Shown here in pieces: positions 1 to 15,922 of a stretch of DNA of 40,180 nt. Positions within the stretch are counted from its first letter, which is position 1. The number at the start of each line of letters is the position of its first letter. Source of the DNA: an uncultured Lachnospiraceae bacterium. Its GTDB lineage: Bacteria; Bacillota; Clostridia; Lachnospirales; Lachnospiraceae. The translations under genes and the position numbers were made by a program. The stretch lies in assembly GCA_946541955.1 (NCBI GenBank), contig CAMNJZ010000009.1:1-40180 (forward strand), written 5' to 3'. The notes beneath the pieces were generated by a model. That model worked only from the letters and a program-made list of their open reading frames with translations, did no database searches and was not told where the DNA came from.

Positions 1-1
1 G

Positions 2-85
2 CAGTACAGCCAGCCGCAGCAGCAGTACAGCCAGCCGCAGTACAGTCAGCCGCAGTACAGTCAGCCGCAGCAGTACGGCCAGCCC
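2..85 (+). repeat. In-frame tandem repeat encoding QYSQP units
   Basis: Copies of a 15-base unit close to cagtacagtcagccg, some with an extra cag, encode the Gln-Tyr-Ser-Gln-Pro linker of the FHA protein. It is coding low-complexity sequence and could vary in length between strains. It extends an unknown distance beyond the left edge. Confidence 0.8.
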
Positions 86-514
86 CAGAGTAATTTCGCA
101 GGCGGCTATACCGGAAATACAAATGGCGGGACGGTGGTCCTGAACAATGTAAGTATATCTGAAGGAACGACCGTTCTGAATCCATCCATGAACAATCTCG
201 GAAAAGCGGCCCCTGTGCTTCAGCCTTATATTGTCCGCTGTAAAACCAATGAAGAAATCCGCATTGCAAAGGATGTCTTCCGAATCGGCAAGGAAAGAAG
301 CTTTGTGGATTATTTCATCATGGATAATCCGACTGTATCCAGAAGCCATGCGGATATTGTAAGGCATAACAATGAATACTTTATCAAAGACAATAATTCT
401 CTGAACCATACCTTCATTGAGGGAAATCAGCTTGAGCCAAATAAAGAGTATCCGCTGAAAACAGGCATGCACTTTGTGCTTTCCAATGAGGAATTCGAGT
501 TTAAGTTACGATAA
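2..514 (+). CDS. FHA-domain protein, 5' end outside window
   Basis: The reading frame is open from base 2, so the gene starts upstream of the window; the GTG at 134 in the track is probably internal. The visible N-terminal part is a low-complexity Gln/Tyr/Ser/Pro linker built on a QYSQP unit. It is followed by a forkhead-associated (FHA) domain with an FRIGKE strand and an SRSHADIV segment, the usual signature that binds phosphothreonine. No membrane segment is visible. The PP2C phosphatase begins 18 bases downstream and the Ser/Thr kinase follows, so this protein is probably a substrate or reader of that pair. What lies upstream (for example a zinc ribbon, as in the protein at 13459) cannot be seen. 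The FHA call is firm; the partner is inferred. Confidence 0.88.
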   Translation, partial: QYSQPQQQYSQPQYSQPQYSQPQQYGQPQSNFAGGYTGNTNGGTVVLNNVSISEGTTVLNPSMNNLGKAAPVLQPYIVRCKTNEEIRIAKDVFRIGKERSFVDYFIMDNPTVSRSHADIVRHNNEYFIKDNNSLNHTFIEGNQLEPNKEYPLKTGMHFVLSNEEFEFKLR

Positions 515-532
515 ATCAGCAAGGGGCAAAGT

Positions 533-1303
533 ATGAGAATAGAGACAGCTTACTCTACAGACATCGGGAAGAAGCAGACAAATCAGGACTCCTGCATGCT
601 CGATACAGCAGAAACCTATTATGGCCCAGTTTCATTGGCGGTCGTTGCTGACGGGATGGGAGGACTGCAGAAAGGAGAACTTGCCAGTGCAGAAGTGGTC
701 CGGGCCTTGGATCAATGGTTCCAGAATGACTTCCCAAACATGATCAGCCACGATATTTCCAGCAGCAGTATCTTTGACAGCTGGAGAACCATTTTAGAAA
801 ATATGAATTCCCGGCTGACCAGGTTTGGGCAGAAATCAGGGGTCAATATCGGGACTACAGTGGCGATCCTTCTTAATATTGCCGACAGATATTATTTTAT
901 GAACGTCGGAGACTCCCGCATATACCTTGTTACGGATGAGGATACACAGATCATTACAAAGGATCATACCCTTGTAATGCATGAAGTAGAACAGGGAAGA
1001 CTCCGTCCTGACCAGGTGGAGACAGATGCCCGCAGAAATGTTCTTTTGCAGTGCATAGGCGCGTCTCCCGTTATTAATCCCTACTACGCAGAAGGAAGAA
1101 TACAAAAAGATTCAGTCTTTGTTTTGTGTTCAGATGGTTTCCGGCATGTGATCAGTACTGGAGAAATCCATGCTGCAATGCGGCCCTGTGTCCAGAATGG
1201 AGAACAGGATATGGAAAGGCATCTGAGAAGTCTGATCGACCTCGATATGCAGCGAGGAGAGAATGACAATATAACGGCAGTTGCTGTTTTGGTCCGCTCG
1301 TAA
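533..1303 (+). CDS. PP2C-family serine/threonine protein phosphatase
   Basis: This is a cytoplasmic metal-dependent phosphatase of the PP2C/PrpC/Stp type, 256 residues, the usual length for a stand-alone catalytic domain. Visible family motifs are NQDS near residue 17, the metal-binding VVADGMGG (D40), GTTVAILL, GDSRIYL, VLCSDGF, and the closing ENDNITAV with the last metal aspartate. There is no signal peptide or membrane segment. The ATG at 533 is preceded by an aaggggc ribosome binding site. It lies 18 bases after the FHA gene and 25 bases before the kinase, the usual kinase/phosphatase pairing. It most likely reverses phosphorylation of the kinase itself, the FHA protein or the cytoplasmic tails of neighbouring membrane proteins; the targets are inferred. 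Confidence 0.95.
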   Translation: MRIETAYSTDIGKKQTNQDSCMLDTAETYYGPVSLAVVADGMGGLQKGELASAEVVRALDQWFQNDFPNMISHDISSSSIFDSWRTILENMNSRLTRFGQKSGVNIGTTVAILLNIADRYYFMNVGDSRIYLVTDEDTQIITKDHTLVMHEVEQGRLRPDQVETDARRNVLLQCIGASPVINPYYAEGRIQKDSVFVLCSDGFRHVISTGEIHAAMRPCVQNGEQDMERHLRSLIDLDMQRGENDNITAVAVLVRS

Positions 1304-1328
1304 AAATGGCAGAAGGGAGCATAACGAT

Positions 1329-3344
1329 ATGGAAAATGTTCATTTATTGCCGCGAGGGACAGTCATTGGCGGCAAATACGAAGTCCTGAGAAAAATCGGC
1401 GAAGGCGGCATGAGTGTTGTCTACCTTGTCATGGATACACACCTCAACAAAAACTGGGCTTTAAAAGAAGTGCGAAGAGATCTGGTCCAGGATTTTGAGG
1501 TGGTCAAACAGGGGCTTGTTGTTGAAACAAATATGCTGAAAAAGCTGAGCCATCCATTTCTTCCCAGAATCGTTGACATTATTGAAACAGAAGGCGTCTT
1601 CTATGTAGTCATGGACTATATAGAAGGCATGACGCTGAAACAGGTCCTGGATGAATATGGTGCACAGCCCCAGGAGAAAGTGATTGAATGGGCCACAGAT
1701 CTTTGTGAGGTCCTCAACTATCTGCATACAAGAAATCCTGCAATCATTTACAGGGATATGAAGCCCGGCAATATAATGCTGAAGCCGGAAGGCGGCATTG
1801 TATTATTTGACTTTGGTATTGCCAGAGAATTTAAGGAAAAAAATGTAGCAGATACGACCTGTCTTGGAACCATCGGATATGCTGCGCCTGAACAGTTCGG
1901 CGGTCAGGGACAGACAACGGAAAGAACAGATATCTACGGCCTGGGAGCAACGCTTTACCACCTGGTGACCGGAATGGATCCCAGTGCACCGCCCTATGAA
2001 ATGGTGCCGATCCGTCAGGTGAATCCTGGCTTATCCTCCGGACTGGAGAAAATAATCCTTAAATGTACCCAGCGCAATCCTAACGACAGATACCAGAGCT
2101 GCGCGGAACTCATGTATGCCTTACAGCATTACAACGAAATGGATGTCGAGTTCCGAAAAAGGCAGAGGAATAAGCTGATTTCCTTCCTTGTCCCTCTATG
2201 CATCAGCCTGATCAGCATTGGCGTCGCAATTTTTTCCTATTTTGGTCTGCAGACGCAGATACGGAACAATTATAACGAGATGCTGAGCATGGCGAACGAT
2301 GCAGCGACCCAGAGCCTGTATGCCGGGGAATATGATGTCAATGTGGTCAACCTCTTTACCGACACCATAGATATTGATCCCAGCATGGAAGATGCATATA
2401 TACGACTGTTGAATTACTGCAACAGGATCGGAGAAACGGAAGCGGGACTCAATGCGGTATGCACAAGGATCGATGCAGGTGTAGGCAATATTGATGAGAA
2501 TTCGAATCTGGTCATGCAGGTTGCAGAGCTGTATTTCGGAGGGAATTCTTATGATGACGATTTTGCCGTTGATTATACACTTGCAGCAAAGTACTTTTCT
2601 TTGGTCGATGAAGCAAAGGAGCCTGGCGTAAGGTACTATTCCGCCCTGGCGAGCGCTCTGGGAAGCTTCAGTGCAAATATCAACTGGAAGGACGTATCCT
2701 CTCTTCTGGACGAGTTCTCATCCTACAATGAGGGACAAACCCTGGATAAGAACCGGGTCAACAATTACATCCTTTCTGCAAATGTCTATACGGCGAACAA
2801 AAGAAACCTTAGCAGTGCAGGCGTTGATCCATATGAAAAGGCGATCGCTTTGCTGCATAAAGCAAATGAAGATGTAGAAATCCTGCTGAAAGATTTAAGG
2901 GCAGATTCCTCAAAATCAGCTGCAGAAGAAATGGAGATGGAAGACATACAGCGTCAGATCATCAGTGATCTTGCATCGAATTACAGTATGGCCTTCACCA
3001 TAGACAGTCCGGTGGGAGATTATGATCAGTCTCTGGAATATTATTCTCAGCTTCTCTCGCTTACAGACAATGCAGATGATGTGCGCAACATATATTTCAG
3101 AATGGCTGATATTTATGTTTCAAAAGGGAATAACGAGCAGACACAGAAGTACTTTGAAGACTTGATCAAGAGATATTCCTCCACTGCTTCTTCCTACCTT
3201 GCTTATGCTTCATGGCTTTATGAACAGGAAGACGCAGATGCAGCTGCAGAAATGTACAAGAGAGCCAGCCAGTGCGCAGATGCAGAAGAGGATTCCAATT
3301 ATCAAAGACTTGGAACGAAACTGAGAAATGCCGGAAAGATATAG
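1329..3344 (+). CDS. Membrane Ser/Thr protein kinase with C-terminal helical-repeat domain
   Basis: The protein has 671 residues. The start is ATG 1329, preceded by agaaggga; the track's TTG at 1281 overlaps the phosphatase gene and is rejected. The Hanks-type kinase domain (about 15-265) has a glycine loop GEGGMSVV at 24, Lys46, Glu66, YRDMKPGN at 141-148, DFG at 161-163 and APE at 186-188, so it should be active. The usual HRD histidine is tyrosine, as in some eukaryotic kinases. A single membrane helix spans about 283-307. The remaining 360 residues, predicted outside the cell, are acidic, helical and TPR-like near the end, in place of the PASTA repeats of PknB/PrkC. It probably phosphorylates the neighbouring FHA protein or the tails of the surface proteins. 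The TPR assignment is by eye. Confidence 0.93.
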   Translation: MENVHLLPRGTVIGGKYEVLRKIGEGGMSVVYLVMDTHLNKNWALKEVRRDLVQDFEVVKQGLVVETNMLKKLSHPFLPRIVDIIETEGVFYVVMDYIEGMTLKQVLDEYGAQPQEKVIEWATDLCEVLNYLHTRNPAIIYRDMKPGNIMLKPEGGIVLFDFGIAREFKEKNVADTTCLGTIGYAAPEQFGGQGQTTERTDIYGLGATLYHLVTGMDPSAPPYEMVPIRQVNPGLSSGLEKIILKCTQRNPNDRYQSCAELMYALQHYNEMDVEFRKRQRNKLISFLVPLCISLISIGVAIFSYFGLQTQIRNNYNEMLSMANDAATQSLYAGEYDVNVVNLFTDTIDIDPSMEDAYIRLLNYCNRIGETEAGLNAVCTRIDAGVGNIDENSNLVMQVAELYFGGNSYDDDFAVDYTLAAKYFSLVDEAKEPGVRYYSALASALGSFSANINWKDVSSLLDEFSSYNEGQTLDKNRVNNYILSANVYTANKRNLSSAGVDPYEKAIALLHKANEDVEILLKDLRADSSKSAAEEMEMEDIQRQIISDLASNYSMAFTIDSPVGDYDQSLEYYSQLLSLTDNADDVRNIYFRMADIYVSKGNNEQTQKYFEDLIKRYSSTASSYLAYASWLYEQEDADAAAEMYKRASQCADAEEDSNYQRLGTKLRNAGKI

Positions 3345-3360
3345 AAGGGAGAGATGACAA

Positions 3361-4038
3361 GTGCCGTATGAAGTGATGATGTATGCTGCACTCGCCTGTG
3401 CTGCTGTATCTTTCACCATTGCTTTGATTTTGTTTATTAATCTTAAGATCCCATCTGTGATCGGTGATTTAACAGGAAGTACTGCCAAAAAAGAAATTGC
3501 CGAAATGCAGAAGGAAGGTCGAATTGGAAGTTCCGGTACCTCAAGGACATCCAAAAACGAAGCGAAAGGCAGAAAGAAAAAACATAAAGAAAAGCCAGCA
3601 AAACACAATGAGCTTTCGGGGAGTACTGCAAAGCTTACGCAGAATGAGACGATGGATCCTGCTCCGGCCTTTGAAGGAACGGAGATCCCTCAGGAGAGAC
3701 CAGTACAAACCGCAGCAGCACAGACCTATTATGAGCCGGTCAATAGGCCCGGACCGGAAATGGATTACCAGACGAATCAGAACAGAAATCAGATGGTATA
3801 TCCGGCTGAGAATAAGGAAATAGCGCCAGCGAACAATACCTATAATACACAAAGACCCGCAGCCGGTAATGCTTCCTACAGAGGCACCATGGCTGGACAG
3901 ACGATTTGGATCAATGGGCCAGGAAGACAGGAAGAACAGGGAACCATCGTCCTGTCATCCGAAGATCAGAAATATCCTTCTCATTTTACATTGCTAAAAC
4001 ATGTAGTAGTTGTTAATACACAGGAACGCATAGACTGA
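3361..4038 (+). CDS. Single-pass membrane protein with disordered linker, function unknown
   Basis: I do not recognise this 225-residue protein. The start is GTG 3361, with ggagag about 7 bases upstream; an ATG at 3354 runs into a stop after five codons. It opens with one hydrophobic helix (about residues 5-28), then a Lys-rich stretch, then a long Gln/Pro/Asn/Thr-rich disordered linker. It ends in a short, more ordered segment containing GTIVLSSE and LLKHVVVV. No catalytic motif is seen. It lies 16 bases after the kinase and 20 bases before the giant surface protein, so it belongs to the same transcript. Its many Ser/Thr residues would suit it as a kinase substrate or as a scaffold between kinase and surface protein, but that is inference. 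Confidence 0.75.
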   Translation: MPYEVMMYAALACAAVSFTIALILFINLKIPSVIGDLTGSTAKKEIAEMQKEGRIGSSGTSRTSKNEAKGRKKKHKEKPAKHNELSGSTAKLTQNETMDPAPAFEGTEIPQERPVQTAAAQTYYEPVNRPGPEMDYQTNQNRNQMVYPAENKEIAPANNTYNTQRPAAGNASYRGTMAGQTIWINGPGRQEEQGTIVLSSEDQKYPSHFTLLKHVVVVNTQERID

Positions 4039-4058
4039 AGTTAAAGGGAGAGCAAGAA

Positions 4059-7000
4059 ATGGTAACCCGAAACAAATGGAGACAGCTCATTGGAATTCTG
4101 TCAGTTATCGTAATAACTGCGACGTCCTTTCCCGCAAATGTCATCGCGGAAGGCGGTACAGAAGAACCGAGCGTAACAGAAGAGACACAAGGTGCTTCTT
4201 CAGAAGAAAAAAAGTCGGACTCTGAAAATACCGGAAATACTGGAAATACAGAGACGCCTGCCTCAGAAGGGAAGCAGGAGAATACAGGGAACACTTCTGA
4301 AAATCAGACTGATAATTCAGAACCCGAAACAAATCAGGGAAATGACAATCCGACGGCAGAGACTGCGACGGCCAAAGTATCGATCAGCTCTGAGTCCGGA
4401 TCTTTTGTGATTGGAAAGACTGCCGATACCAGCAGTATTCGTTTAAAAGCAGCGGTCAGCGAATATGAGGGCAGCTACAACCTGGCATGGACTGGCACGA
4501 ACGGTATTTCTATTCAGGGAGCCGACAAAGAAACCGCAACAGTTACCGGTTCAAAGGCCGGAACAGCAGAAGTAACTGTTAAGGTGACCAGTTCAGACGG
4601 TATGGTACTGGGAACAGATACAGTGGAAGTAAAAGTCTGGACAGACCGTGCTGTATCTTCCCGCGTCTATACCGATACACCGAATAATAATTCCAAGGCA
4701 ACAAAAAAGGCATATGTAGGCGAAAGCCTCCGCTGGGTCATCGAATCTTCCAATGACGAGAATGATGCAGAAAGCAATTATACTTTCCAGTGGATGAAGA
4801 AAGAAAACAATGCGTTTTCTGCAATCAAAAATGCTGTGAAAGAATCCTACAGCCCCAAGGAACCTGGAACCTATAAGGTTGTCGTATCCAGATCTGAAGG
4901 AAATTATTATCATGAATTTTCCTTTGAATCTGAGGAAGTCACAGTCGAAAAGACCCCTGTAACAGTCAGCTGGGAGAGCGCTTCCAGAGAATTTGTGCGT
5001 GGCCTCAAGACATTTAACTATACTGGAAAATCTACGGTTACGGCGAAGGATTCTGTTTCCGGCGCTTCTTATGAAAAGGACAGTCTGTCAGCATCCATTA
5101 ACAATAAGACTTTTGATATCTCCTCCGCGCAGGTGGGGACATATACCATCCATCCTGCAAATGGTCTTGATGCTGAGAAGTATGATATTACAGATCATGG
5201 TGCAGAGGTAAAAATTACCAAAGCGGTTCTTGCAGTTACAGTAAAGCTCTCCGACAAGCAGTTTGATAATACAGAGGAACTGAAGGAAGATACAGAGATC
5301 ACGATTACTTTTGATGTAGATGATCTTTCAAAAGCAAGTCTTTCTGCAGAAACTACGGAACTCGTTCATGAAGATGGGACCCCTGTTACCATTCAGGATT
5401 TCATGATTTCTACCAAGGGACAGGTCGACCAGGATACAGACGCCAAGGTCAGTATCAGGGATGGAATAAAGTTCTTTGTTAAGACGCAAAAAGGCGTAAG
5501 CAGTAATTTTGGCGCAGAAGTTACTCTGTCGGATATTGTTATTAAGAAGAACGAATGGACCTTTGAGCAGGTCGGTGAATTAAAGGAAGCCGATGGTGTT
5601 GTTTACAGGGACTCCGATGGTATTTCCTGGACTAAAACAGGCGATGATGGCGCTTCCGTAGAGATCCTTGCCAAGGACGGGTTTACCTTATCTGATTCCC
5701 TGGAGGGAGATTACAAGGAGTCTGTCCAGATCAGATTCGGAACAGAACATACCTTTACAGTTTATGCGACGGATGCGGATGGCAATATCGGCCAGATTGT
5801 TTATGACGATGTATCCATTGACAACGAGGCACCGGAGGTTGATCTGGAAAAATCAACCTACGAAGTATTTGGACATCAGAACCGCACGAATACATATGCT
5901 GTTTCTGACACAGGCAGCGGCATCAAGGATATCGCTTATAGAATCAGTGAAACAGAAATTGATCCTGCCTATTCTGCAGGCAGTACTGAATGGACCCATG
6001 TACAGGTCCCTGAAAAGGAAGATGGAAAGGTAGAGCTGAAGCTTACAGTTCCGACCTATGGATATGTGTATTTCTATCTGGAGGATCACCTTGGAAATGC
6101 GGAAATCCGTAAGCTCCATATGCTTGTCCTTGAGGATGGAAAACCGGCTGTTTCCATGGAGTTAAAGGCTGAGGAAGTCGACGCTTCTAAAGCTTCGGTT
6201 CAGGTGACCGCAGAGGACAAAGGAAGCAGTGGAAATAATGCTTCCGGCATATCTTATATTGAATTCGCTTTAACAGACAGCGAGGGCAGAGACGTTACAG
6301 ACCAGGCTTCCTTCCTGATGGATGAAAAAGATGGCTACGTTCAGAACGGAACGAGAGTTGGCTTTGAAGAAGCTCCCGCAGATATTCAGTCCCTGAGCAA
6401 ATACACAAAGGCGGAAGCTGGAATGCAGATTTCCGGCAAGGACCTTGAAGGAACATACACACTGACTGTAAAAGCTGTAGATTTTTGCGGAAACGTCAGT
6501 GAGAGTAAAAGCGTAGATCTTGTTTTTGACACAAAGGCCCCTACTGTAACAGTCAGTATGGAGAACGGAAACCAGGTAGGGGATACATGGTATTACAACA
6601 AGAATAACTGCGGCGTAACCCTGATTTTTGAGGATTTGAATCTCTCCGAAGGCGGTACCTTCAGAGCTGTCATAACAGACAGTGCAGATACAGCGATTGA
6701 AAAAGAGATTTCAACAGCCGAACTGGAAGACAGCACGCAGGCAAGCATCAGATTCAGTGCTACAGAAATTGCAGCGCTTGCTGACGGCACGATCAATATT
6801 TCTGTCACTGCTGTTGACGCAAATGCAAACAGTACGAAAGACATCACCGCAATAGGAACCACTGCATCTGGAACAAAGGCTGCTTTTGTGCTGGATACAA
6901 TTGCTCCTCAGATCATCTCTGCGAAGCGCCAGAGTGCTGGTAAGGTGAATGACAAAGACATTAAAAAATTCATTGGTTCCAATAACCTCGCCATGACGCT

Positions 7001-10000
7001 GGTGATCGAGGATGAAAATATTGACAGTAAGCAGTTTAAAGGATCTTCGACCAAGGGAAAAGTTGGCTTTATGGCCACGGCTGAGGGAAACCAGGTGACA
7101 GCTGTCTTTGCCATGACAAAAGGTAAATATGGCTACCTGCTCATAGATGGAACAGACTATGCCGGAAATGTTCTTACAGTCTCTCCTACATATGAACATG
7201 GAAAGTATTCTGTCTGGACAAACACAGAGACCGGTGCAACAACCGACAGCACCTATGAAATCGTAACAGGTGAGCCGGCTGCTCATATTACATATAAGAA
7301 TGGCGTGAATGACCTTGAAAAGAGGTTTGTTTACGGAAAGGATGCATATTTCAATTCTTCTGTCGCAAGTGCCAGCGTGACGCTCAGTAATGTTGAAGCA
7401 GAGGACTATCCTTACTTATCTGCAGCCCTGATCGCGGAAGGCGAAGATCCTGAAACTGCTGAATTCAAAGTGTTTGATTCAGAGTCTATGACTTTCGAAT
7501 TCCCTGCAGATGGAGCCTACTATGTCCTTATTAAAGGCAGTAACCGCGCCATGACGCCTGTTACTGTCCAGGAACAGAATCTGGCGGGCGGAGAAGATCT
7601 CTCAGCAAAGCAGAGCAGCGAAACAAAAGTATATCAGTCTTCCTATAGGCTGATCCGGGATACCAAAGCTCCCAGAGCCGTAATCAATCTGATTCCGGGC
7701 GAGGGAACTGCAAATACGGAAATCAATTCCGAATATGGAGAACGGTATTACTTTAACAAGAGCTTCACTGCAGAACTGACTGTCAGCGACATTCATCTTG
7801 ATGAGGAAGCATCCACTGTACATTTTGTACAGGCATCTGCTGCAGATTATGAAGATGCATCCACAGTTACTTTCGCTTCCATAGATGATTACAGCAGTGA
7901 GATTGCCGGTACCTACAGTGCAGCTGATAATGCGGGCATTTTCAGAACCGAGATTACAACAGACGGTGTATACAGCTTTGCTGTATATGGCGAAGACCTT
8001 GCCGGTAATGCAGTCATTCTCGATTCTGTTCAATATGCTGATGGAAGCATTGCCGTCAACAAAGAAGAATGCAATGACAAGGAAGCCAACAAATCCAACA
8101 TTGTAGTACTTGATACAGTTATTCCGACCGGTAAGATTTTCGTTACTGCCGGAGAGGAGACTGTATATGAAATGACAACGGAAGGACAGGTATCTGTTTT
8201 AAAGCCTTATATCAATGAGAAAAAGGTTACGGTATCGGCTTTAGTAGATGAAAATGAAAAGACACCTGTCTCAATCAGCTTTATGCTGAATGAGAAAAAC
8301 AAACCTGCAGACCTTCCTGAAACAAGCGCTGATTATAAAGTTGGCCAGAGGGTGGATCTTGAGGCTGCCGCCAGCCAGGTATTTACTGTGAGCAATCTTG
8401 TGATCACAGATCTGGCCGGAAACAGTTCAGCCGCAACGCCTGAATCACGAAAGCTCTATCTGGATACAGATATACCGGATGGAGAATATGGAGATGCGAT
8501 TGCACCTCTGATCCAGATCAGTGCCAATAACGCTTCTTCTTACGGGGACGAAGGAACACCGCTGTTTAATGGAGACAGGGATGTCGAATTTAGAATTACA
8601 GTCGTAGATCCCTATGAACCCGACAAGAGTATGGAAGAGGACGCGGCCTTCAGCAGTTCCGGCTTAGCCAGCGTCAGCTGGAAACTGATCAATACAGCAA
8701 GCGGTCAGGAACTGATCCCTTCATCGGACCTGTATAAATTCGATGGTACTTTCTACCCTACAGCGGAAGAGGCGGCCAAGGAAGTTTATACATACTCTGT
8801 GAATGAGAAGGTCGTTGTCAGCAAGGATTCTTATAACTACAATACGCTGAAGCTGGTCGTTGAAGCCTACGACAATGCCGGAAATCATTTTGAACAGGAC
8901 TATGCCTTTGGTATAGATGCCACAGCCCCCGAAGTGACGGTCTCCTATGAGGGCGGCAGCGCTAAGTCAGGAAACTACTTTGACGGAGCGAGAAAAGCGA
9001 CTGTTACGGTTAAGGAAAGAAACTTTGATCCGGATAAACTGAAAGTGGTAGTTACCGGAGATTCTGAGGGCAGCACCGTAGCGGATGCCGGCGTTGTTAC
9101 AGTTCCTGACGAATGGACACCCGCTTCCGGAAACGGACAGGGCAATGGCGATAATGATACCTATACCAAGGAGATCACATTTAATAATAATGGCCATTAT
9201 ACACTGCATGTCTCCAGTGCGGATTATGGTGAGGACACAGCCGAGGACCATGTAGGAAATAAAGGCACCGTAAATTATACGGGCGAGGCACCCACCGACT
9301 TCTATATTGATACGGTTGGTCCGACCATTAAGTTTGTCATGGCCCTGTCAGAAAATGACAAGGATCCAGACGGCAATTATTACTACCGTGCAGATAACTG
9401 CGGCGTACAGGTAATCTTTTCGGATAATGGACGGCTTCTTGGCAGCTCTGACGGATCTGTCGAGAAATATATGATTTCTGTTGACGGAAAAAATGAAAAG
9501 GTCTTTTCTGACTTTGGCACAGGACAATCGTCAATCAAGCTTGGCTACAGTGCAGATGAACTGGCCAAGGACAGACTGATAGAAGACGGTTCCCATACGA
9601 TTACGATCACGGCAGTTGATGCGTCAGGAAACAGAACCACGGAAGTCATGGCTGACAGTAAGGGCGCAAATTTTGCAGGCAGTTCTAATCCGGGACCTAC
9701 AGCACAGTTTATCCTTGATACGGTAAATCCTGCTGTTACAGCTGTCTCTACGGATGCGGCTGATGGAAACAGCAGTAACTTCAGCGACTTAAAAGTCTAT
9801 GAAGATACGAACAGTGCATATTACAACAAAAACATCAGGATCACCCTGGATGTTAAGGATCAGTATGCTTCCAGCACTGCTTTCTCCGGAGCAATAAACA
9901 GCGAGAGCGGTGATGCAGTGAACGCTGCTGTCTCAGATCAGGCGGATGGCGTTGCAGCAGTATACTCCCTGAAAGCCGACAGCGCTTATACAGGTCTGAC

Positions 10001-13000
10001 ACTGACCGGTAAAGACAAAGCCGGCAACCCGCTTGTCCTGGATTCCAGCTATGATCATGAGATGTGTGATTCCCTGAATGCAGACAACGGAACGGTCAAA
10101 GCTGTCTATGACAAGGTTGTTGATTCCAAGAAGCCTGAAGTTAAAATTGAGTATTTGTCGGATGACTATGCCAATATGTATGAAGGCGAGACGGATGGTA
10201 AGGAGAGCGCATATTATAACAGTGACATCACGGTAAAAATGAGCATTTCCGACAACTATGCGCTGGATGGCAAGAAAATAACAGCCGGTCAGGGAGAAGA
10301 GGTTTCCGCCATCAGTATTCCTGATAATACGGCCTCCTTCAGCCTGGATGATGTTGTTATTACAGAGGATGGACGTTATACATTCACATGCAGCGGAACA
10401 GACCGTGCATTAAACAAGACCATCGTTTCTGAAATGATTCCTCAGACGGATGATGCGCCGGAGCAGACTTATCTTGACGGCGAAGAGACCTCGGCATATG
10501 TGAGCCGCTACGAGCTGGTACTGGATAAAACTGCGCCTACATTTGTATTTGATATTAAGACAGATGCAGATGTGAAGAATCTTTCTGCCCAGGGGAACAG
10601 ATACTATTTTAATGCGGGCTATACCGCGACCCTGACGGTAACAGATGTCAACTTCGATCCTGAAAAAGTCGAATTAAAGAAGGGATCGGTCAAGACAGGA
10701 AAGTATAACAGCTCTACAGAAATCGTAGAAACCTTTACCGAATCTGTGACCAGTCAGACAAATGTCTATGTTGACGAGGCAGATACAACAAACGGCGTCT
10801 TCAGATATGTTATTTTCGGCAGTGATAAAGCAGGAAACGCTCTGGTTGCTGAGAATACAAAAAATCTGGACGGAACCGTAAACAGTGCTGTCGATGAAGA
10901 AACAGAAGTGTCCAGAGGATCTCTTGAGAAGGAAGCAGATGCTTCTAATCATATTGTAGTAGATACAGTAGATCCCAAAGGAAAAGTAGAGGTCAGTAAG
11001 TCCGCTTCTTCGGATGTGTATTACAGCATGGATACAGATGAACAGGTATCTTATGCAGAGCCGTACAGAAGTGAAACCGCAGCACATATCCTCTTTACCG
11101 TTGACACTGCCGTTGAGCGGACACCTGTAAAAATCTACTATCAGATCACTTCAAGTACAGATACAGGTGCGCCTTCCGAGTATGCTTCCTCAGAGTATGC
11201 ATACAATGCCTCCGCATCCAAAGAGCAGAAAGGGCAGCAGATTTTCCGGATCAGCAGCTATAAGCTGACTGACCTGGCCGGCAACAGTGTTTCCTGCAGC
11301 TCGAAGAATAAGATCTATCTTGATGTGGAACCTCCTGTAGAAGATCAGCTGGCGCCTACAATCAATGTTTCGGCCACAGCTAGAGAAGAATGCAGAGATG
11401 GAAATGGACAGCCTCTGTTCAACAAAGATGTTCCTATTAGGATTGTAGTGGAGGATAAGCATCAAAACGCCAGCAGTTCCGGTCTGGCTGACATCACGTA
11501 TGAGATGTATATCAATGGTTCTTCTGAACCTGTAAAAGGTGAAACCCAGACCCTTCATGCAGCAGCACAGAAGAAGCATGAATCGGCATATGATGATGCA
11601 GAACTGGACTACAAGCTGGATCGGACGATCACTGTAGACAGTAAGAGCCATAACTATAACAATCTCAGAGTTGTGGTCAAAGCAACGGATAATGCCGGAA
11701 ATGTTTCTTCAAAAGAATACAGATTTGGCATCGATATCACCAAGCCTACAATTTCGGTTGACTATGACAATAACAGTGCCCAGAACGGCAAGTATTTCAA
11801 GGCCAATCGTGTGGCGACGGTTGTCGTTAAGGAAAGAAATTTTGACAGTTCTCTGATCAAGATTACAACTGAAGGCGGAGCTGCCATCAGTGGATGGAAA
11901 CATACAAGAGCAAACGACAGCAATGGCGACGGTGATACCTGGTCATGTACCATAACATATTCAAGAGACGGCAACTATCATCTTACACTGGCAGGCTCTG
12001 ATATGGTTGGATGGCAGGCCGAGAATATTTCTTATAAAGGCACCGCTCCCAGAGACTTTGTTATTGATAAGACAGCACCCAGAGTGGTCGTCAGCTATGA
12101 CAATAACAGTGTCCAGAATGGAAAGTATTATAAGGATTCCAGAACTGCTACAGCGACCGTAACGGATGTGAACTTTAATGGAGCAAATGCTATAAAGATC
12201 AGTGCATCCGGAGGCGGAACAGCCCCTGGTGTCCGTTTCAATGGAAAAACAGCTTCTATGCCGTTTACAAGCGATGGTGTATATAAGATAACCGGAACAG
12301 TAACGGATATGGCAGGAAATGTGTCTAATGTACTGAATGAGGCTGAATTTGTCATTGATAAGACTGCACCGGAGATTTCTCTCTCAGGCGTAAAGGATCT
12401 GTCGGCAAATAATGTTCCTTTGAACATTACCCTGAAAATGGTCGACACAAACTATAATCCGGATGGTTTTGAGCCTGTTCTCAAAGGCACAAATCATGGA
12501 CGTGTTGCGATCAGTGGTGAGCCTAAATATGTTGACGACGGAATTACTTATGTTCTGGAAGAGATAAAGGTAGATGATTACTATGAGCTTGTTTATACTG
12601 CTACGGATCTTGCAGGTAATACAAGTGAAATGAAGGTGTCATTCTCTGAAAACCAGAACGGTACTTCATTTAAGTTTGTTCAGGATGAGTACAATGGAAA
12701 GGCTACAAACAAGACCTTTAATCCGGAGTTTATACTGAGCAATATTGATGAAATAACAATTATGTCAGTCACACTGAACGGTAAGGAAACACCTTATACG
12801 TTCAAAAACAACCATCTCGTGCTGAATACCAAAACAGACACGGATGGAAAATATACTATTACTATCGATACCAAGGATGCGGCCGGAAATCTGACATCCA
12901 TGGATCCTGTTGAGTTCCAGATTGATACGAAAGCGCCTGTCCTTACGGTCGATGGACTGAATGGCAAGGCAAAGTATTATTTTGATGAATTCAACCTGAC

Positions 13001-13346
13001 TTTCTATCACGATAATCCAGACGATATTTTCTCAGTCATCAAAATGAACGGAATTGATCTGGATCAGAGTGAATATACCGTGAATGATGATGGATCTATT
13101 ACGATTCATATTGGACAGTATCAGGATTATGATATTGAAATCCAGGTTTCTGATGCAGCCGGAAATGTCAGTGAATTTGAGAATATCCGGTTCACAATGA
13201 CCAGAAACCCCTTCATCCGCTGGTATACCAATACGCCTCTTTTCTTACTTTCTCTCGTCGTTCTTACGGCCATTATTGTATGGCTGATCCTGCTGTGGAA
13301 GAGAAGAAAAGATGAAGATGAGGAAGAAGAAGGCGCAAGTGCATAA
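4059..13346 (+). CDS. Giant membrane-anchored surface protein with tandem Ig-like modules
   Basis: The protein has 3095 residues; ATG 4059 follows an aaagggagag ribosome binding site. A signal peptide (about 1-30) is followed by a Ser/Thr/Glu/Asn-rich linker (about 31-105), Big-like and MBG-like domains, then a long array of Ig/cadherin-like modules. Module borders carry a D-x-x-x-P signature (FDTKAP, IDTVGP, IDKTAP), at least 17 times, often with YYFN and D-x-NFD motifs inside. Residues 824-1750 and 1751-2669 are two in-register seven-module super-repeats. The C-terminus has one membrane helix (VVLTAIIVWLILLW) and a short tail, KRRKDEDEEEEGASA; no LPXTG sortase signal is present. It probably acts as a long surface stalk or adhesin whose tail faces the cytoplasmic kinase. 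Ligand unknown. Confidence 0.9.
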   Translation: MVTRNKWRQLIGILSVIVITATSFPANVIAEGGTEEPSVTEETQGASSEEKKSDSENTGNTGNTETPASEGKQENTGNTSENQTDNSEPETNQGNDNPTAETATAKVSISSESGSFVIGKTADTSSIRLKAAVSEYEGSYNLAWTGTNGISIQGADKETATVTGSKAGTAEVTVKVTSSDGMVLGTDTVEVKVWTDRAVSSRVYTDTPNNNSKATKKAYVGESLRWVIESSNDENDAESNYTFQWMKKENNAFSAIKNAVKESYSPKEPGTYKVVVSRSEGNYYHEFSFESEEVTVEKTPVTVSWESASREFVRGLKTFNYTGKSTVTAKDSVSGASYEKDSLSASINNKTFDISSAQVGTYTIHPANGLDAEKYDITDHGAEVKITKAVLAVTVKLSDKQFDNTEELKEDTEITITFDVDDLSKASLSAETTELVHEDGTPVTIQDFMISTKGQVDQDTDAKVSIRDGIKFFVKTQKGVSSNFGAEVTLSDIVIKKNEWTFEQVGELKEADGVVYRDSDGISWTKTGDDGASVEILAKDGFTLSDSLEGDYKESVQIRFGTEHTFTVYATDADGNIGQIVYDDVSIDNEAPEVDLEKSTYEVFGHQNRTNTYAVSDTGSGIKDIAYRISETEIDPAYSAGSTEWTHVQVPEKEDGKVELKLTVPTYGYVYFYLEDHLGNAEIRKLHMLVLEDGKPAVSMELKAEEVDASKASVQVTAEDKGSSGNNASGISYIEFALTDSEGRDVTDQASFLMDEKDGYVQNGTRVGFEEAPADIQSLSKYTKAEAGMQISGKDLEGTYTLTVKAVDFCGNVSESKSVDLVFDTKAPTVTVSMENGNQVGDTWYYNKNNCGVTLIFEDLNLSEGGTFRAVITDSADTAIEKEISTAELEDSTQASIRFSATEIAALADGTINISVTAVDANANSTKDITAIGTTASGTKAAFVLDTIAPQIISAKRQSAGKVNDKDIKKFIGSNNLAMTLVIEDENIDSKQFKGSSTKGKVGFMATAEGNQVTAVFAMTKGKYGYLLIDGTDYAGNVLTVSPTYEHGKYSVWTNTETGATTDSTYEIVTGEPAAHITYKNGVNDLEKRFVYGKDAYFNSSVASASVTLSNVEAEDYPYLSAALIAEGEDPETAEFKVFDSESMTFEFPADGAYYVLIKGSNRAMTPVTVQEQNLAGGEDLSAKQSSETKVYQSSYRLIRDTKAPRAVINLIPGEGTANTEINSEYGERYYFNKSFTAELTVSDIHLDEEASTVHFVQASAADYEDASTVTFASIDDYSSEIAGTYSAADNAGIFRTEITTDGVYSFAVYGEDLAGNAVILDSVQYADGSIAVNKEECNDKEANKSNIVVLDTVIPTGKIFVTAGEETVYEMTTEGQVSVLKPYINEKKVTVSALVDENEKTPVSISFMLNEKNKPADLPETSADYKVGQRVDLEAAASQVFTVSNLVITDLAGNSSAATPESRKLYLDTDIPDGEYGDAIAPLIQISANNASSYGDEGTPLFNGDRDVEFRITVVDPYEPDKSMEEDAAFSSSGLASVSWKLINTASGQELIPSSDLYKFDGTFYPTAEEAAKEVYTYSVNEKVVVSKDSYNYNTLKLVVEAYDNAGNHFEQDYAFGIDATAPEVTVSYEGGSAKSGNYFDGARKATVTVKERNFDPDKLKVVVTGDSEGSTVADAGVVTVPDEWTPASGNGQGNGDNDTYTKEITFNNNGHYTLHVSSADYGEDTAEDHVGNKGTVNYTGEAPTDFYIDTVGPTIKFVMALSENDKDPDGNYYYRADNCGVQVIFSDNGRLLGSSDGSVEKYMISVDGKNEKVFSDFGTGQSSIKLGYSADELAKDRLIEDGSHTITITAVDASGNRTTEVMADSKGANFAGSSNPGPTAQFILDTVNPAVTAVSTDAADGNSSNFSDLKVYEDTNSAYYNKNIRITLDVKDQYASSTAFSGAINSESGDAVNAAVSDQADGVAAVYSLKADSAYTGLTLTGKDKAGNPLVLDSSYDHEMCDSLNADNGTVKAVYDKVVDSKKPEVKIEYLSDDYANMYEGETDGKESAYYNSDITVKMSISDNYALDGKKITAGQGEEVSAISIPDNTASFSLDDVVITEDGRYTFTCSGTDRALNKTIVSEMIPQTDDAPEQTYLDGEETSAYVSRYELVLDKTAPTFVFDIKTDADVKNLSAQGNRYYFNAGYTATLTVTDVNFDPEKVELKKGSVKTGKYNSSTEIVETFTESVTSQTNVYVDEADTTNGVFRYVIFGSDKAGNALVAENTKNLDGTVNSAVDEETEVSRGSLEKEADASNHIVVDTVDPKGKVEVSKSASSDVYYSMDTDEQVSYAEPYRSETAAHILFTVDTAVERTPVKIYYQITSSTDTGAPSEYASSEYAYNASASKEQKGQQIFRISSYKLTDLAGNSVSCSSKNKIYLDVEPPVEDQLAPTINVSATAREECRDGNGQPLFNKDVPIRIVVEDKHQNASSSGLADITYEMYINGSSEPVKGETQTLHAAAQKKHESAYDDAELDYKLDRTITVDSKSHNYNNLRVVVKATDNAGNVSSKEYRFGIDITKPTISVDYDNNSAQNGKYFKANRVATVVVKERNFDSSLIKITTEGGAAISGWKHTRANDSNGDGDTWSCTITYSRDGNYHLTLAGSDMVGWQAENISYKGTAPRDFVIDKTAPRVVVSYDNNSVQNGKYYKDSRTATATVTDVNFNGANAIKISASGGGTAPGVRFNGKTASMPFTSDGVYKITGTVTDMAGNVSNVLNEAEFVIDKTAPEISLSGVKDLSANNVPLNITLKMVDTNYNPDGFEPVLKGTNHGRVAISGEPKYVDDGITYVLEEIKVDDYYELVYTATDLAGNTSEMKVSFSENQNGTSFKFVQDEYNGKATNKTFNPEFILSNIDEITIMSVTLNGKETPYTFKNNHLVLNTKTDTDGKYTITIDTKDAAGNLTSMDPVEFQIDTKAPVLTVDGLNGKAKYYFDEFNLTFYHDNPDDIFSVIKMNGIDLDQSEYTVNDDGSITIHIGQYQDYDIEIQVSDAAGNVSEFENIRFTMTRNPFIRWYTNTPLFLLSLVVLTAIIVWLILLWKRRKDEDEEEEGASA
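6528..12065 (+). repeat. Two tandem ~2.8 kb coding super-repeats (seven Ig-like modules each)
   Basis: Repeat 1 begins at the D of FDTKAP (base 6528, residue 824). Repeat 2 begins at the D of IDTVGP (9309, residue 1751) and ends before IDKTAP (12066, residue 2670). The border motifs line up in order: FDTKAP/IDTVGP, LDTIAP/LDTVNP, a degenerate VTGEPA/VDSKKP, RDTKAP/LDKTAP, LDTVIP/VDTVDP, LDTDIP/LDVEPP and IDATAP/IDITKP. The sequence between them also matches, for example GTPLFNGD with GQPLFNKD and VVVSKDSYNYN with ITVDSKSHNYN. Confidence 0.82.
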
Positions 13347-13383
13347 GCAGGTCGCGTTCAGATACAGGTAAAATGTAATAGCT

Positions 13384-13435
13384 AACAGGACAAATGGGGG
13401 ATACCGTTATTTCGATTTCCTTCGTTTGTCCTGTT
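13384..13435 (+). other. 11-base perfect inverted repeat between surface-protein and zinc-ribbon genes
   Basis: AACAGGACAAA (13384-13394) pairs perfectly with TTTGTCCTGTT (13425-13435) across a 30-base loop, just upstream of the zinc-ribbon gene's ribosome binding site. There is no T-run after it, so it is a weak terminator candidate at best. It may be an RNA processing or stability element that sets the level of the downstream gene. Confidence 0.5.
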
Positions 13436-13458
13436 CATTTAGAGGGAGTATATGCTAT

Positions 13459-14598
13459 ATGGTTACTGTCAGGTGCCGGAAATGCGGAAATATTGTGCCA
13501 TCGAGCAGTGTATATTGTTCCTATTGCGGATTTCCTTTGGCCAGCTCTCATCAGAAACCACGGCATGAGACAGCGGTTCTGGACAGAGGGAACAGAGGCC
13601 GCGAAAGCCATGTTCCCCAGACAGAGCAAGGGCAGGAAGGAAGGCAGATTTCGAGGCCTGGCGGCTATTATAAGGAAACGAATGCCGATGGATCTTTGCA
13701 AAGGGCAGGAATCATCCATGATCAGCAGATAAGGAGTCAAGGAGAAATACAATATAAAACTTCACAATATGGAACAGCACAGCCATATGTTTTATATAAT
13801 CAATCCAATTCGCAGGAGAATAGCCGTGCTTCGCATAAACCCGACAGGCCTTCACAGCTTTATGGTACAGAATACTACCCTATGAATACGAAAGGCTATG
13901 AGCCGGCTACTGCCAAACTATATGACAGCAAAGAAGAGGAAATTGCAGAAAAAAGAAGAGAATCCAGAAAAAAGAGAAAGGATTTGCGAAAAGAAGAAAA
14001 GAGACAGGCAAGAAAGGAACTGTCAGACATTGTGGAAGTGACATCCGGAGTGCACAGGTTTCTTGGACAGCTGCTGCTGTTTGTCAGCTGGAATATGCTG
14101 CTGGTACTGTCTGCGGCCTATATTCTCTGGTTTTCCAGCATAATAATGATTGGAGAACTGGATTTCAGCATCGATGTTACCACGAGTCCCATGGGCATGC
14201 ATCTTTTGGGGGTGCTTGCGGTTTTTGCTTTCTCATACCTGGTGGGGAGGCTTTCAGTGAATCTTCTGAAGATCAATGCAGAGATCCCAACCGTTTTCTT
14301 TATTATGCTGAGCGGCTGTATCCATTCCCTGCAGATTACATTGTTTTATCCCTTTTTATCACCAGGGATGGGAGCGGTGATTGCTGCAATAGGAACGGCA
14401 ATTGGCTTATTACTCTTACAGCCCGTATATAAGAAGCCGGGCATGAAACGAATTCTATGGGCCTGCCTGGTTGTGGTCGTTTTATTCGTCATTTTGAGCA
14501 CCATAGCAAGGCCTCAGCTGATCTTCCTTTTTGAAAGACTGGTGGAGAGGTTAGAAATGCTGTTTTCACCGATTGAGCTTTATGGGGAAATGATATAG
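13459..14598 (+). CDS. Zinc-ribbon polytopic membrane protein, function unknown
   Basis: I chose ATG 13459, which follows agaggga; the track's start at 13426 is TTG and lies inside the preceding hairpin. The 379-residue protein begins with a zinc ribbon (CRKC then CSYC within the first 25 residues). It continues with a disordered Tyr/Gln/Ser linker, a highly charged Lys/Arg/Glu helix (EEEIAEKRRESRKKRKDLRK region) and four or five membrane helices. The Tyr/Gln linker resembles that of the FHA protein at the left edge. It is the last same-strand gene of the cluster, 112 bases after the giant protein. A role as a membrane partner of the kinase system is inferred from position only. Confidence 0.75.
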   Translation: MVTVRCRKCGNIVPSSSVYCSYCGFPLASSHQKPRHETAVLDRGNRGRESHVPQTEQGQEGRQISRPGGYYKETNADGSLQRAGIIHDQQIRSQGEIQYKTSQYGTAQPYVLYNQSNSQENSRASHKPDRPSQLYGTEYYPMNTKGYEPATAKLYDSKEEEIAEKRRESRKKRKDLRKEEKRQARKELSDIVEVTSGVHRFLGQLLLFVSWNMLLVLSAAYILWFSSIIMIGELDFSIDVTTSPMGMHLLGVLAVFAFSYLVGRLSVNLLKINAEIPTVFFIMLSGCIHSLQITLFYPFLSPGMGAVIAAIGTAIGLLLLQPVYKKPGMKRILWACLVVVVLFVILSTIARPQLIFLFERLVERLEMLFSPIELYGEMI

Positions 14599-14649
14599 CC
14601 AGTACTTTTTTGTATGATCTGGCAGCAGATTTAAGAAATGTGCTGATTC

Positions 14650-14871
14650 TTAGTGATTCTCAGAATTTTGCAGAGGAAGCTGATTCATAAAATGGGTCTT
14701 GATTAAATCCTCCGTTTCCTGGACTTGATCAAGGATCATTTCGGTAATAATACTTGGATCAAAACTGTCATCGGAAAGATCACAGCACTCCTTATACATT
14801 TTCAGAAGGGTCAACGCCTTGAAGTTCGAATACTCGATCTTTCCAATTACTTTGAGTATTTCAGTATCCAT
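14650..14871 (-). CDS. Small acidic protein, 73 residues, function unknown
   Basis: This short minus-strand frame has a convincing ribosome binding site, aaaggagat, about 12 bases before ATG, which is slightly far. The protein is helical and acidic, without signal peptide or membrane segment, and contains a Cys-Cys pair (KECCDL). I do not recognise a family. It is convergent with the zinc-ribbon gene (51 bases apart) and stands alone on its strand. The ribosome site and protein-like composition argue that it is real; the short length keeps confidence moderate. Confidence 0.55.
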   Translation of the reverse strand: MDTEILKVIGKIEYSNFKALTLLKMYKECCDLSDDSFDPSIITEMILDQVQETEDLIKTHFMNQLPLQNSENH

Positions 14872-15152
14872 ATCTATGATAATCTCCTTTGAATGTTCCT
14901 GACTGTGTTACGGGATATACGCTGCTGTCGTATGCGTGATTATTTGGGGAAAATCCGAACAAAGGATATATAACTATGAAAGTATAAGGAATATTTAGAT
15001 TATAGCAGAAATATATAAAAAGCTAAATGGAAATTGCACCTACAGATAAAACAGGAGACATTTTTCCTATCTTTTATTAAAAAATATTGGGCTTTGGCCA
15101 TAGGACATAATGGGGCTGTCATTGATTCGAAGCATGTGAGAATAAAAATTTT
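14872..15152. other. AT-rich gene-free stretch
   Basis: No gene is supported here. The stretch is AT-rich. It holds the ribosome binding site of the small minus-strand gene at its left end, a small inverted repeat ATACG...CGTAT near 14915-14931, and several TATAAT-like strings on the minus strand that could serve as its promoter. None has a good paired -35 box, so no promoter is called. Confidence 0.5.
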
Positions 15153-15187
15153 TTTATAAAAAAGGACCTGGCCGACGGCCAGGTCCT
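15153..15187 (-). terminator. Rho-independent terminator of the FN3 protein gene
   Basis: On the minus strand, 46 bases after the stop codon, GGACCTGGCC and GGCCAGGTCC form a perfect 10-base stem (extended by one A-T pair) around a 3-base loop, followed directly by a run of six T. This is a textbook intrinsic terminator. Confidence 0.93.
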
Positions 15188-15232
15188 CTGCGTTCCATAT
15201 GAAGTTGTAATGCTAAGCTGTCGGATCCTCTA

Positions 15233-15922
15233 TCAGTCAAGAACCTGAGACAGGATGGTCTTTGTAGGAGCGGAGAAGTATACGGTCTTGCCATCCTTGA
15301 TGTAAGCGAGACCCTTGATGAAGTATGCTTCGCCCTTCTTGAGGCCGGTGATCTTGACAGACTTGGTGTCTGTCTTGAAGGCATCGATATCCTTGGTCTT
15401 GGTGTCTGTCCACTTGAAGCTGGGGCTCCACTCGACCTCATAGCCGTCAGCCTTGGCGTTTTTGCTGAAGCGGACTCTGCAGTAGGTGTTGTCGAGGTTA
15501 GCATCCTTCAGTGTAAGCTTGGGAGTCTCGATGCGATAGAAGAACAGAGCCTTGCTGTATTTGCTCAGGGTGTTGCCCTTAGCGTCGACGCATCTGACCT
15601 TGTAGGTGTAGCCTGTGCCGTTCTTGACCTGCTTGTCAACGATGTAGGTGTTGGTGGTGGTGCGAAGAAGCTTGTAGGAGCCTTCCTCTACCTTGCGGTA
15701 TACGGCATAATACTTGGCGCCGGATACCTTCTTCCACTCGACACGCAGACCGTTCCTGGTGTTCCTGACGGATGTCATGGTGGGTCTGCTGAGGCTGGTG
15801 CTGTCAGCCTGGGACACAACCTTGTTGGTGCTGGTCGCGACCGGTGCAGCCATAGCTGTCAGAGAGCTGCAGGCGATTGCTGCTGCGAGGACCGCAGCGG
15901 TGATGATTTTTCTCAGTTTCAT
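15233..15922 (-). CDS. Secreted protein with two fibronectin type III-like domains
   Basis: The 229-residue protein has a signal peptide (KK...AAVLAAAIACSSLTAMA, cleavage probably near residue 26) and two FN3-like beta domains, about 43-135 and 136-229. Typical FN3 strands are visible: LRVEWKKVSGAKYYAVYRK and a GYTYKVRCVD strand in the first, GYEVEWSPSF and a KITGLKKGEAYFIK strand in the second. There is no catalytic domain, lipobox, membrane anchor or LPXTG, so it is released or held at the wall by binding. The ATG is preceded by a near-perfect aaggaggt. Similar FN3 segments occur as accessory parts of secreted Clostridia enzymes; here they stand alone. It is divergent from the rhamnosidase operon and has its own strong terminator. 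Confidence 0.87.
   Translation of the reverse strand: MKLRKIITAAVLAAAIACSSLTAMAAPVATSTNKVVSQADSTSLSRPTMTSVRNTRNGLRVEWKKVSGAKYYAVYRKVEEGSYKLLRTTTNTYIVDKQVKNGTGYTYKVRCVDAKGNTLSKYSKALFFYRIETPKLTLKDANLDNTYCRVRFSKNAKADGYEVEWSPSFKWTDTKTKDIDAFKTDTKSVKITGLKKGEAYFIKGLAYIKDGKTVYFSAPTKTILSQVLD

What the first reader, a model, noticed from the sequence alone, without database searches (positions are those of the whole stretch)
6528..12065. Seven-module super-repeats of about 920 residues in the giant protein
The D-x-x-x-P module borders recur in the same order in residues 824-1750 and 1751-2669, and the intervening segments match too (GTPLFNGD/GQPLFNKD, VVVSKDSYNYN/ITVDSKSHNYN, VKERNFDPDK/VKERNFDSSL). 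This points to one duplication of a 2.8 kb block followed by divergence, rather than module-by-module growth.
Basis: seen in the sequence. Interest (0 to 1): 0.6.

Follow-up and report, generated by a model that had tools for sequence, protein, structure and literature searches.

The report
Doubled seven-domain block in giant protein
A gut bacterium's 3,095-residue surface protein contains two old, diverged copies of the same seven-domain stretch, made by one large duplication that lengthened a membrane-anchored rod sitting beside kinase and phosphatase genes of the kind found in type VII secretion loci.

Summary
Residues 824-1750 and 1751-2669 align end to end (E=4.8e-113; score 955 against 70±12 for shuffles), and profiles built only from single-block relatives put all 14 modules at the matching position (module A3 marginally). 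Homologues in the genus show the event: single-block relatives carry modules 1-7 once; this protein and three others carry them twice. In the tree the A copies form one clade, the B copies another, and A+B together split from all single blocks (100/100); separate duplications are rejected (p-AU 0.0006). So one old block duplication is supported; the membrane-distal A copy has diverged faster. It is not the family's only mode: module 7 was singly duplicated long before, G008 tripled module 1, G029/G010 multiplied module 3, and other genera repeat ~340-490-residue units.

Modules are Ig-like (confident AlphaFold model of the last three). The gene closes a conserved FHA–PP2C–Ser/Thr kinase–small membrane protein operon matching published TseJ-F-D-H/K-I of T7SSe, so the giant is most likely a TseI-type envelope-spanning rod. 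No EssC or WXG100 was found in this incomplete genome, and the operon looks compositionally foreign. Multi-domain duplication is the usual growth mode of domain-repeat proteins, so novelty is moderate.

The parts
4059..13346 (+). Giant gene, 3095 aa, TseI-like Ig-module rod with signal peptide and C-terminal membrane helix
   Evidence: translation; Big_13 E 2.7e-17; hydropathy peaks 10-31 and 3055-3083; GGGAGAG-like ribosome site upstream of the ATG
4059..4151 (+). Signal peptide-like N-terminus (residues 1-31)
   Evidence: hydropathy
4152..6527 (+). N-terminal region before the blocks (residues 32-823), not part of the super-repeat
   Evidence: no module-profile match except a weak m6-like stretch at 710-817
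6528..9308 (+). Block A (residues 824-1750): modules A1 6528-6896, A2 6897-7265, A3 7266-7658, A4 7659-8111, A5 8112-8465, A6 8466-8918, A7 8919-9308
9309..12065 (+). Block B (residues 1751-2669): modules B1 9309-9719, B2 9720-10121, B3 10122-10523, B4 10524-10961, B5 10962-11324, B6 11325-11735, B7 11736-12065
12066..12359 (+). Module C1 (residues 2670-2767), ancient single-module duplicate of module 7, present in nearly all relatives
   Evidence: z 21.0 with B7; offset ~103-120 in nearly all homologues; m7 profile second hit
12360..13346 (+). C-terminal Ig-like modules, membrane helix (13221-13307) and acidic cytoplasmic tail
   Evidence: Big_13 2882-2957; hydropathy
2..514 (+). FHA-domain protein, 5' end cut by the contig end; TseJ-like
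   Evidence: FHA E 2.2e-14; similar to the DUF6382-FHA protein of L060, 43%, 1e-30
533..1303 (+). PP2C-type phosphatase; TseF-like
   Evidence: PP2C_2 1.7e-13; Stp1 family 1.9e-47, below cut-off
1281..3344 (+). Membrane Ser/Thr kinase with one membrane helix (297-325) and a TPR region beyond it, probably extracellular; TseD/TsjD-like
   Evidence: Pkinase 4.9e-44, TPR_12 4.3e-08; hydropathy
3361..4038 (+). Small single-helix membrane protein; TseH/TseK-like
   Evidence: hydropathy 4-38; homologues at the same place in L061, G335, G180, G204

Best explanation
The two ~920-residue blocks come from one in-frame tandem duplication of a pre-existing row of seven different Ig-like modules, in the gene lineage leading to this protein and to those of G009, G071 and G077, followed by long divergence with no sign of homogenisation (shown by alignment and tree). 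Block B kept the ancestral membrane-proximal position and changed more slowly; block A, on the membrane-distal side, diverged faster and has lost modules in two of the four carriers (shown). The protein is a secreted, C-terminally membrane-anchored Ig rod of the TseI type: it closes a conserved FHA–PP2C–Ser/Thr kinase–small membrane protein operon and probably crosses the cell wall as part of, or as a sensor for, a T7SSe-like machine controlled by phosphorylation (operon shown; role inferred). The likely effect of the duplication is a longer rod, by about seven modules or roughly 25-30 nm at about 4 nm per Ig module, moving the N-terminal region further from the membrane and freeing the outer copy to vary (inferred).
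For: End-to-end alignment; position-wise module matrix and profiles trained without A or B rows; block tree with AU test; single-block relatives with modules 1-7 in order; A has lost modules in G071 (m1, m4-m7 left) and G077 (m5, m6 lost) while B stays whole; A-A identity between G000 and G009 is 32.7% against 41.9% for B-B, and Tajima tests favour faster A with most outgroups; four-fold sites only 34% identical against 26% expected, so the event is old. Ig-like fold: AlphaFold model of m6-m7-C1, pLDDT 81.1, matches tandem-Ig proteins including invasin, antigen I/II and SiiE. Operon conserved across families; the same component types are published for T7SSe (PMC11217815); in G303 the operon abuts YukD, EssC, WXG100 and LXG/RHS genes, and in G008 and G077 it lies about 6-7 kb from EssC.
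Against: Module 3 alone does not show the pairing clearly. With outgroups G007 and G063 the A/B rate difference is mostly not significant. No EssC or WXG100 gene was found in this genome, and three nearly complete genomes (G335, G344, G353) have the giant without EssC. In the genus, EssC is no commoner in genomes with a giant (5 of 23) than without (8 of 39). The rooting, that the doubling came after the split from single-block genes, is by parsimony. The full-block structure model is poor (pLDDT 50), so the Ig fold of modules 1-5 rests on homology and strand pattern.
Confidence: 0.75

Rival explanations
1. Module-by-module growth: the array grew one module at a time and the two blocks look parallel by chance or convergence.
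For: Single-module duplications do occur in the family: m7 to C1 almost everywhere, m1 x3 in G008, m3 x5-6 in G029/G010, single-module tandem in G307. Modules 2, 3 and 4 are related to each other.
Against: Six of seven modules match the same position in the other block far better than any neighbour, and single-block relatives have the same seven-module order.
Confidence: 0.03
2. Two or more independent block duplications, in G000 and in the G009/G071/G077 group.
For: G000's operon differs from its genus in composition and kinase phylogeny, so the genes have partly separate histories.
Against: A copies of both groups form one clade and B copies another; holding A_G000 with B_G000 together costs 42 lnL, p-AU 0.0006.
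Confidence: 0.03
3. The doubling is old (before the single-block genes) and the single-block relatives lost block A.
For: A is visibly eroding in G071 and G077; unrooted trees cannot exclude a root on the A branch.
Against: It needs several independent exact losses; A and B join with 100/100 to the exclusion of all single blocks when rooted on the most distant clade.
Confidence: 0.12
4. Function: not part of a T7SS; a free-standing adhesin or envelope-stress sensor rod read by the neighbouring membrane kinase.
For: Giant (and in G335 and G344 also its kinase) present without EssC in near-complete G335, G344 and G353; fold matches include adhesins; one sub-family keeps only kinase plus giant.
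Against: Gene content matches the T7SSe set of PMC11217815 and is physically linked to EssC/YukD/WXG100/LXG genes in G303, and to EssC in G008 and G077.
Confidence: 0.3

Closest known systems
TseI / TsdI, large Ig-domain component of T7SSe / T7SSd (PMC11217815)
   Same: Sec signal peptide, C-terminal membrane helix, Ig-like domains, encoded beside a membrane Ser/Thr kinase, PPM phosphatase, FHA protein and small membrane protein
   Different: 3095 aa against 1654 aa for O. uli TsdI; doubled seven-module super-repeat; no EssC or WXG100 seen in this incomplete genome; kinase has TPR, as described for TsjD of T7SSj
Multi-domain duplications in domain-repeat proteins (PMC1553488), titin (connectin) super-repeats
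   Same: Ordered sets of domains recur as long super-repeats; growth by duplication of several domains at once
   Different: Bacterial, two copies only, about 30% identical, unrelated sequences; titin's super-repeats are recalled from general knowledge, not tested here
SiiE / Big_13 bacterial Ig-like adhesins (PDB 2yn3)
   Same: Profile match E 2.6e-4 and fold match E 1.8e-4; Big_13 above cut-off
   Different: SiiE is a type I-secreted Gram-negative adhesin (own knowledge); here a membrane-anchored protein with a kinase operon
Periscope proteins (PMC9704523)
   Same: Surface rod whose length changes by repeat gain or loss
   Different: Periscope repeats are nearly identical at coding level and vary within populations; these blocks are ~30% identical

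Membership tests
T7SSe TseI | Large protein with Sec signal peptide, several Ig-like domains and C-terminal membrane helix | tested here: met
T7SSe TseI | Encoded with Ser/Thr kinase (D), PPM phosphatase (F) and a small single-helix protein (H/K) | tested here: met
   window 533-4038
T7SSe TseI | DUF6382-FHA protein (J) in the locus | tested here: inconclusive
   FHA domain found, but the gene's 5' end is cut by the contig end; close homologue in L060 has DUF6382
T7SSe TseI | EssC-type ATPase (C) and WXG100 proteins (A, A2) in the locus | tested here: inconclusive
   Not found in the 85%-complete genome; locus cut at the contig end. YukD (B) was not searched for in this genome. Components beside relatives' operons: G303 EssC, YukD, WXG100; G077 and G008 EssC
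T7SSe TseI | Sequence orthology to published TseI/TsdI proteins | not tested
   Published sequences were not fetched
Periscope proteins | Near-identical tandem repeats at coding level | tested here: not met
   31.6% identity A to B, third codon position 36%
Titin-type super-repeat (mode of growth) | Same ordered set of different domains repeated, equivalent positions more alike than neighbours | tested here: met
   six of seven positions clear, module 3 only by profile and collinearity
Big_13 bacterial Ig-like domain | Pfam model above gathering score | tested here: met
   63.6 bits against 27 for the protein; 22 of 26 blocks match at E<0.01

The most novel reading that the evidence does not exclude
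The FHA-phosphatase-kinase-Ig rod cassette is a separable signalling module with an evolvable rod: lineages repeatedly lengthen it by copying whole multi-module segments on the outer side of a conserved membrane-proximal core, it works with or without a T7SS ATPase, and rods are exchanged between operons, so that rod length and outer modules set reach or target choice.
Probability: 0.2. Interest if true: 0.7.

Novelty: new variant of a known kind. Interest (0 to 1): 0.42.

Why it matters
It gives a tree-resolved example of how a bacterial envelope-spanning rod doubles in length in one step, with single-block and double-block relatives both available. The family shows super-repeats of different sizes in different lineages around a constant C-terminal core, which makes rod length a testable variable in a poorly studied class of type VII secretion loci.

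Tried and rejected
An alignment-based scan of named genomes found no conserved stretch; the single-protein scan found four named relatives. Recent duplication or periscope-type array rejected on identity. Searching the G000 genome with the N-terminal region of G009 found nothing. Separate duplications rejected by AU test. NCBIfam's OmpL47-type hit to the giant (42.8 bits) was taken as a repeat-unit match, not as evidence of a barrel. A kinase-domain-only tree contained one mis-cut row (G044); the full-kinase tree is the one relied on.

Full report
Observation. The ORF at 4059-13346 (+) encodes 3095 residues with a signal-peptide-like start and a C-terminal membrane helix. Its residues 824-1750 and 1751-2669 form one BLASTP alignment over their whole length (29.5% identity over 987 columns, E=4.8e-113), with a local score of 955 against 70±12 for shuffled sequence. 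A sliding self-comparison gives one long off-diagonal, 798-1775 against 1712-2691, offset 914-953. With seven modules per block, same-position z-scores are 20.1, 10.9, 5.2, 17.8, 24.4, 30.7 and 23.6; within-block scores do not exceed 6.9. Profiles trained only on single-block and shortened relatives assign every A and B module of this protein to its own position, A3 only narrowly. In block A the border between modules 2 and 3 has lost D-x-x-x-P.

History. The genus held in the collection has 62 genomes, 23 with a homologue at E<=1e-10. Nine homologues carry modules 1-7 once and in order; others carry shortened rows such as m1-m4-m5-m6-m7; four (G000, G009, G071, G077) carry two blocks, with G071 and G077 having lost modules from A but not from B. 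In a 16-row tree A copies are one clade (100/99), B copies another (91/94), and A+B are split from all single blocks (100/100); holding A_G000 with B_G000 together is rejected at p-AU 0.0006. A has longer branches and significantly more unique changes than B in all four species against three of five outgroups; against G007 or G063 the difference is often not significant. Four-fold sites shared by the blocks are 34% identical against 26% by chance, so the duplication is old and no recent conversion is visible.

Family-wide pattern. Nearly every homologue has module 7 followed by a second module-7-type domain (C1), an older single-module duplication. Upstream of this conserved core different lineages have grown differently: three module-1 copies in G008, five to six module-3 copies in G029 and G010, units of about 340-390 residues repeated in Hominisplanchenecus murintestinalis (L060) and G335, about 430-490 in G353 and G180, single modules in G307. 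Published work finds that domain repeats most often expand by several domains at a time (PMC1553488), so the mode is not new.

What it is. The best Pfam family is Big_13 (63.6 bits, cut-off 27). An AlphaFold model of modules B6-B7-C1 made from window and L059-L062 sequences has mean pLDDT 81.1 and is nearly all beta; its PDB neighbours include tandem-Ig proteins such as antigen I/II C-terminal domains, invasin, ICAM-5 and SiiE. The full-block model was poor. The gene follows, in order, an FHA protein cut by the contig end, a PP2C phosphatase, a membrane Ser/Thr kinase with TPR, and a small membrane protein. Much of this operon recurs in other families of the order. PMC11217815 describes these component types in T7SSe (TseJ, F, D, H/K and the Ig-domain protein TseI) and proposes that the related TsdI spans the envelope. 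In G303 the operon is followed by YukD-like, EssC, WXG100 and LXG/RHS genes; in G077 and G008 EssC lies about 6-7 kb away. The most likely role is therefore a TseI-type rod; this is inference from gene content.

Limits. No EssC or WXG100 was found in this genome, which is 85% complete and whose contig starts inside the FHA gene. EssC is also missing from near-complete G335, G344 and G353, and across the genus EssC is no commoner with the giant (5 of 23) than without (8 of 39). The first 14.6 kb of the window has 45% GC and low GC3 (0.43-0.54), the rest 56% with GC3 0.74-0.79 in the genes sampled, and two other stretches of the genome have about 57%. The kinase falls outside the genus's kinase clade (p-AU 0.0002-0.003), whereas the giant's C-terminal core falls inside the genus clade, though the alternative is not rejected there (p-AU 0.21). 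Horizontal transfer of the operon, exchange of giant genes between operons, or a chimeric contig would all fit. This does not affect the duplication itself but leaves open in which species it happened. The family is probably Lachnospiraceae, judged only from the named relatives.

Noticed in passing
Phage record PV036441.1, 59743-73741 (L088, L100), and three more records: Human-gut 'Ruminococcus phage' (Ca. Heliusvirales) carries an FtsK/SpoIIIE-like gene, a WXG100-like protein, a kinase-like protein, two small proteins and a signal-peptide + Ig + membrane-helix giant (1852 aa) in a row: a T7SSd/e-like set in a phage record.
   Followed up: partly
window 1-15200 against 16000-40180: Sharp composition step: GC 0.45 and GC3 0.43-0.54 in the operon, GC 0.56 and GC3 0.74-0.79 after it; foreign island or chimeric contig.
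   Followed up: partly
window 1281-3344; L031, L049, L032: Kinase and giant trees disagree: G000's kinase groups outside the genus, and G008 has a G009/G077-like kinase but a G077b-like giant, suggesting mosaic operons.
   Followed up: partly
L033, L034, L035, L036, L040, L042, L052, L057: A sub-family of 1250-1750 aa has an N-terminal membrane helix in place of a signal peptide and sits beside a kinase gene only, without PP2C or FHA neighbours in the stretch read.
   Followed up: no
L080 891-2606 and L061 12278-13939: Secreted trypsin-like protease fused to FIVAR and FHA domains, encoded next to the cassette.
   Followed up: no
window 13426-14598: Zinc-ribbon protein with about five membrane helices directly downstream of the giant; not part of the published T7SSe set.
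   Followed up: no
window 15233-15922 (-): Small secreted-looking protein with an fn3 domain and a GH85_C match, at the composition step.
   Followed up: no
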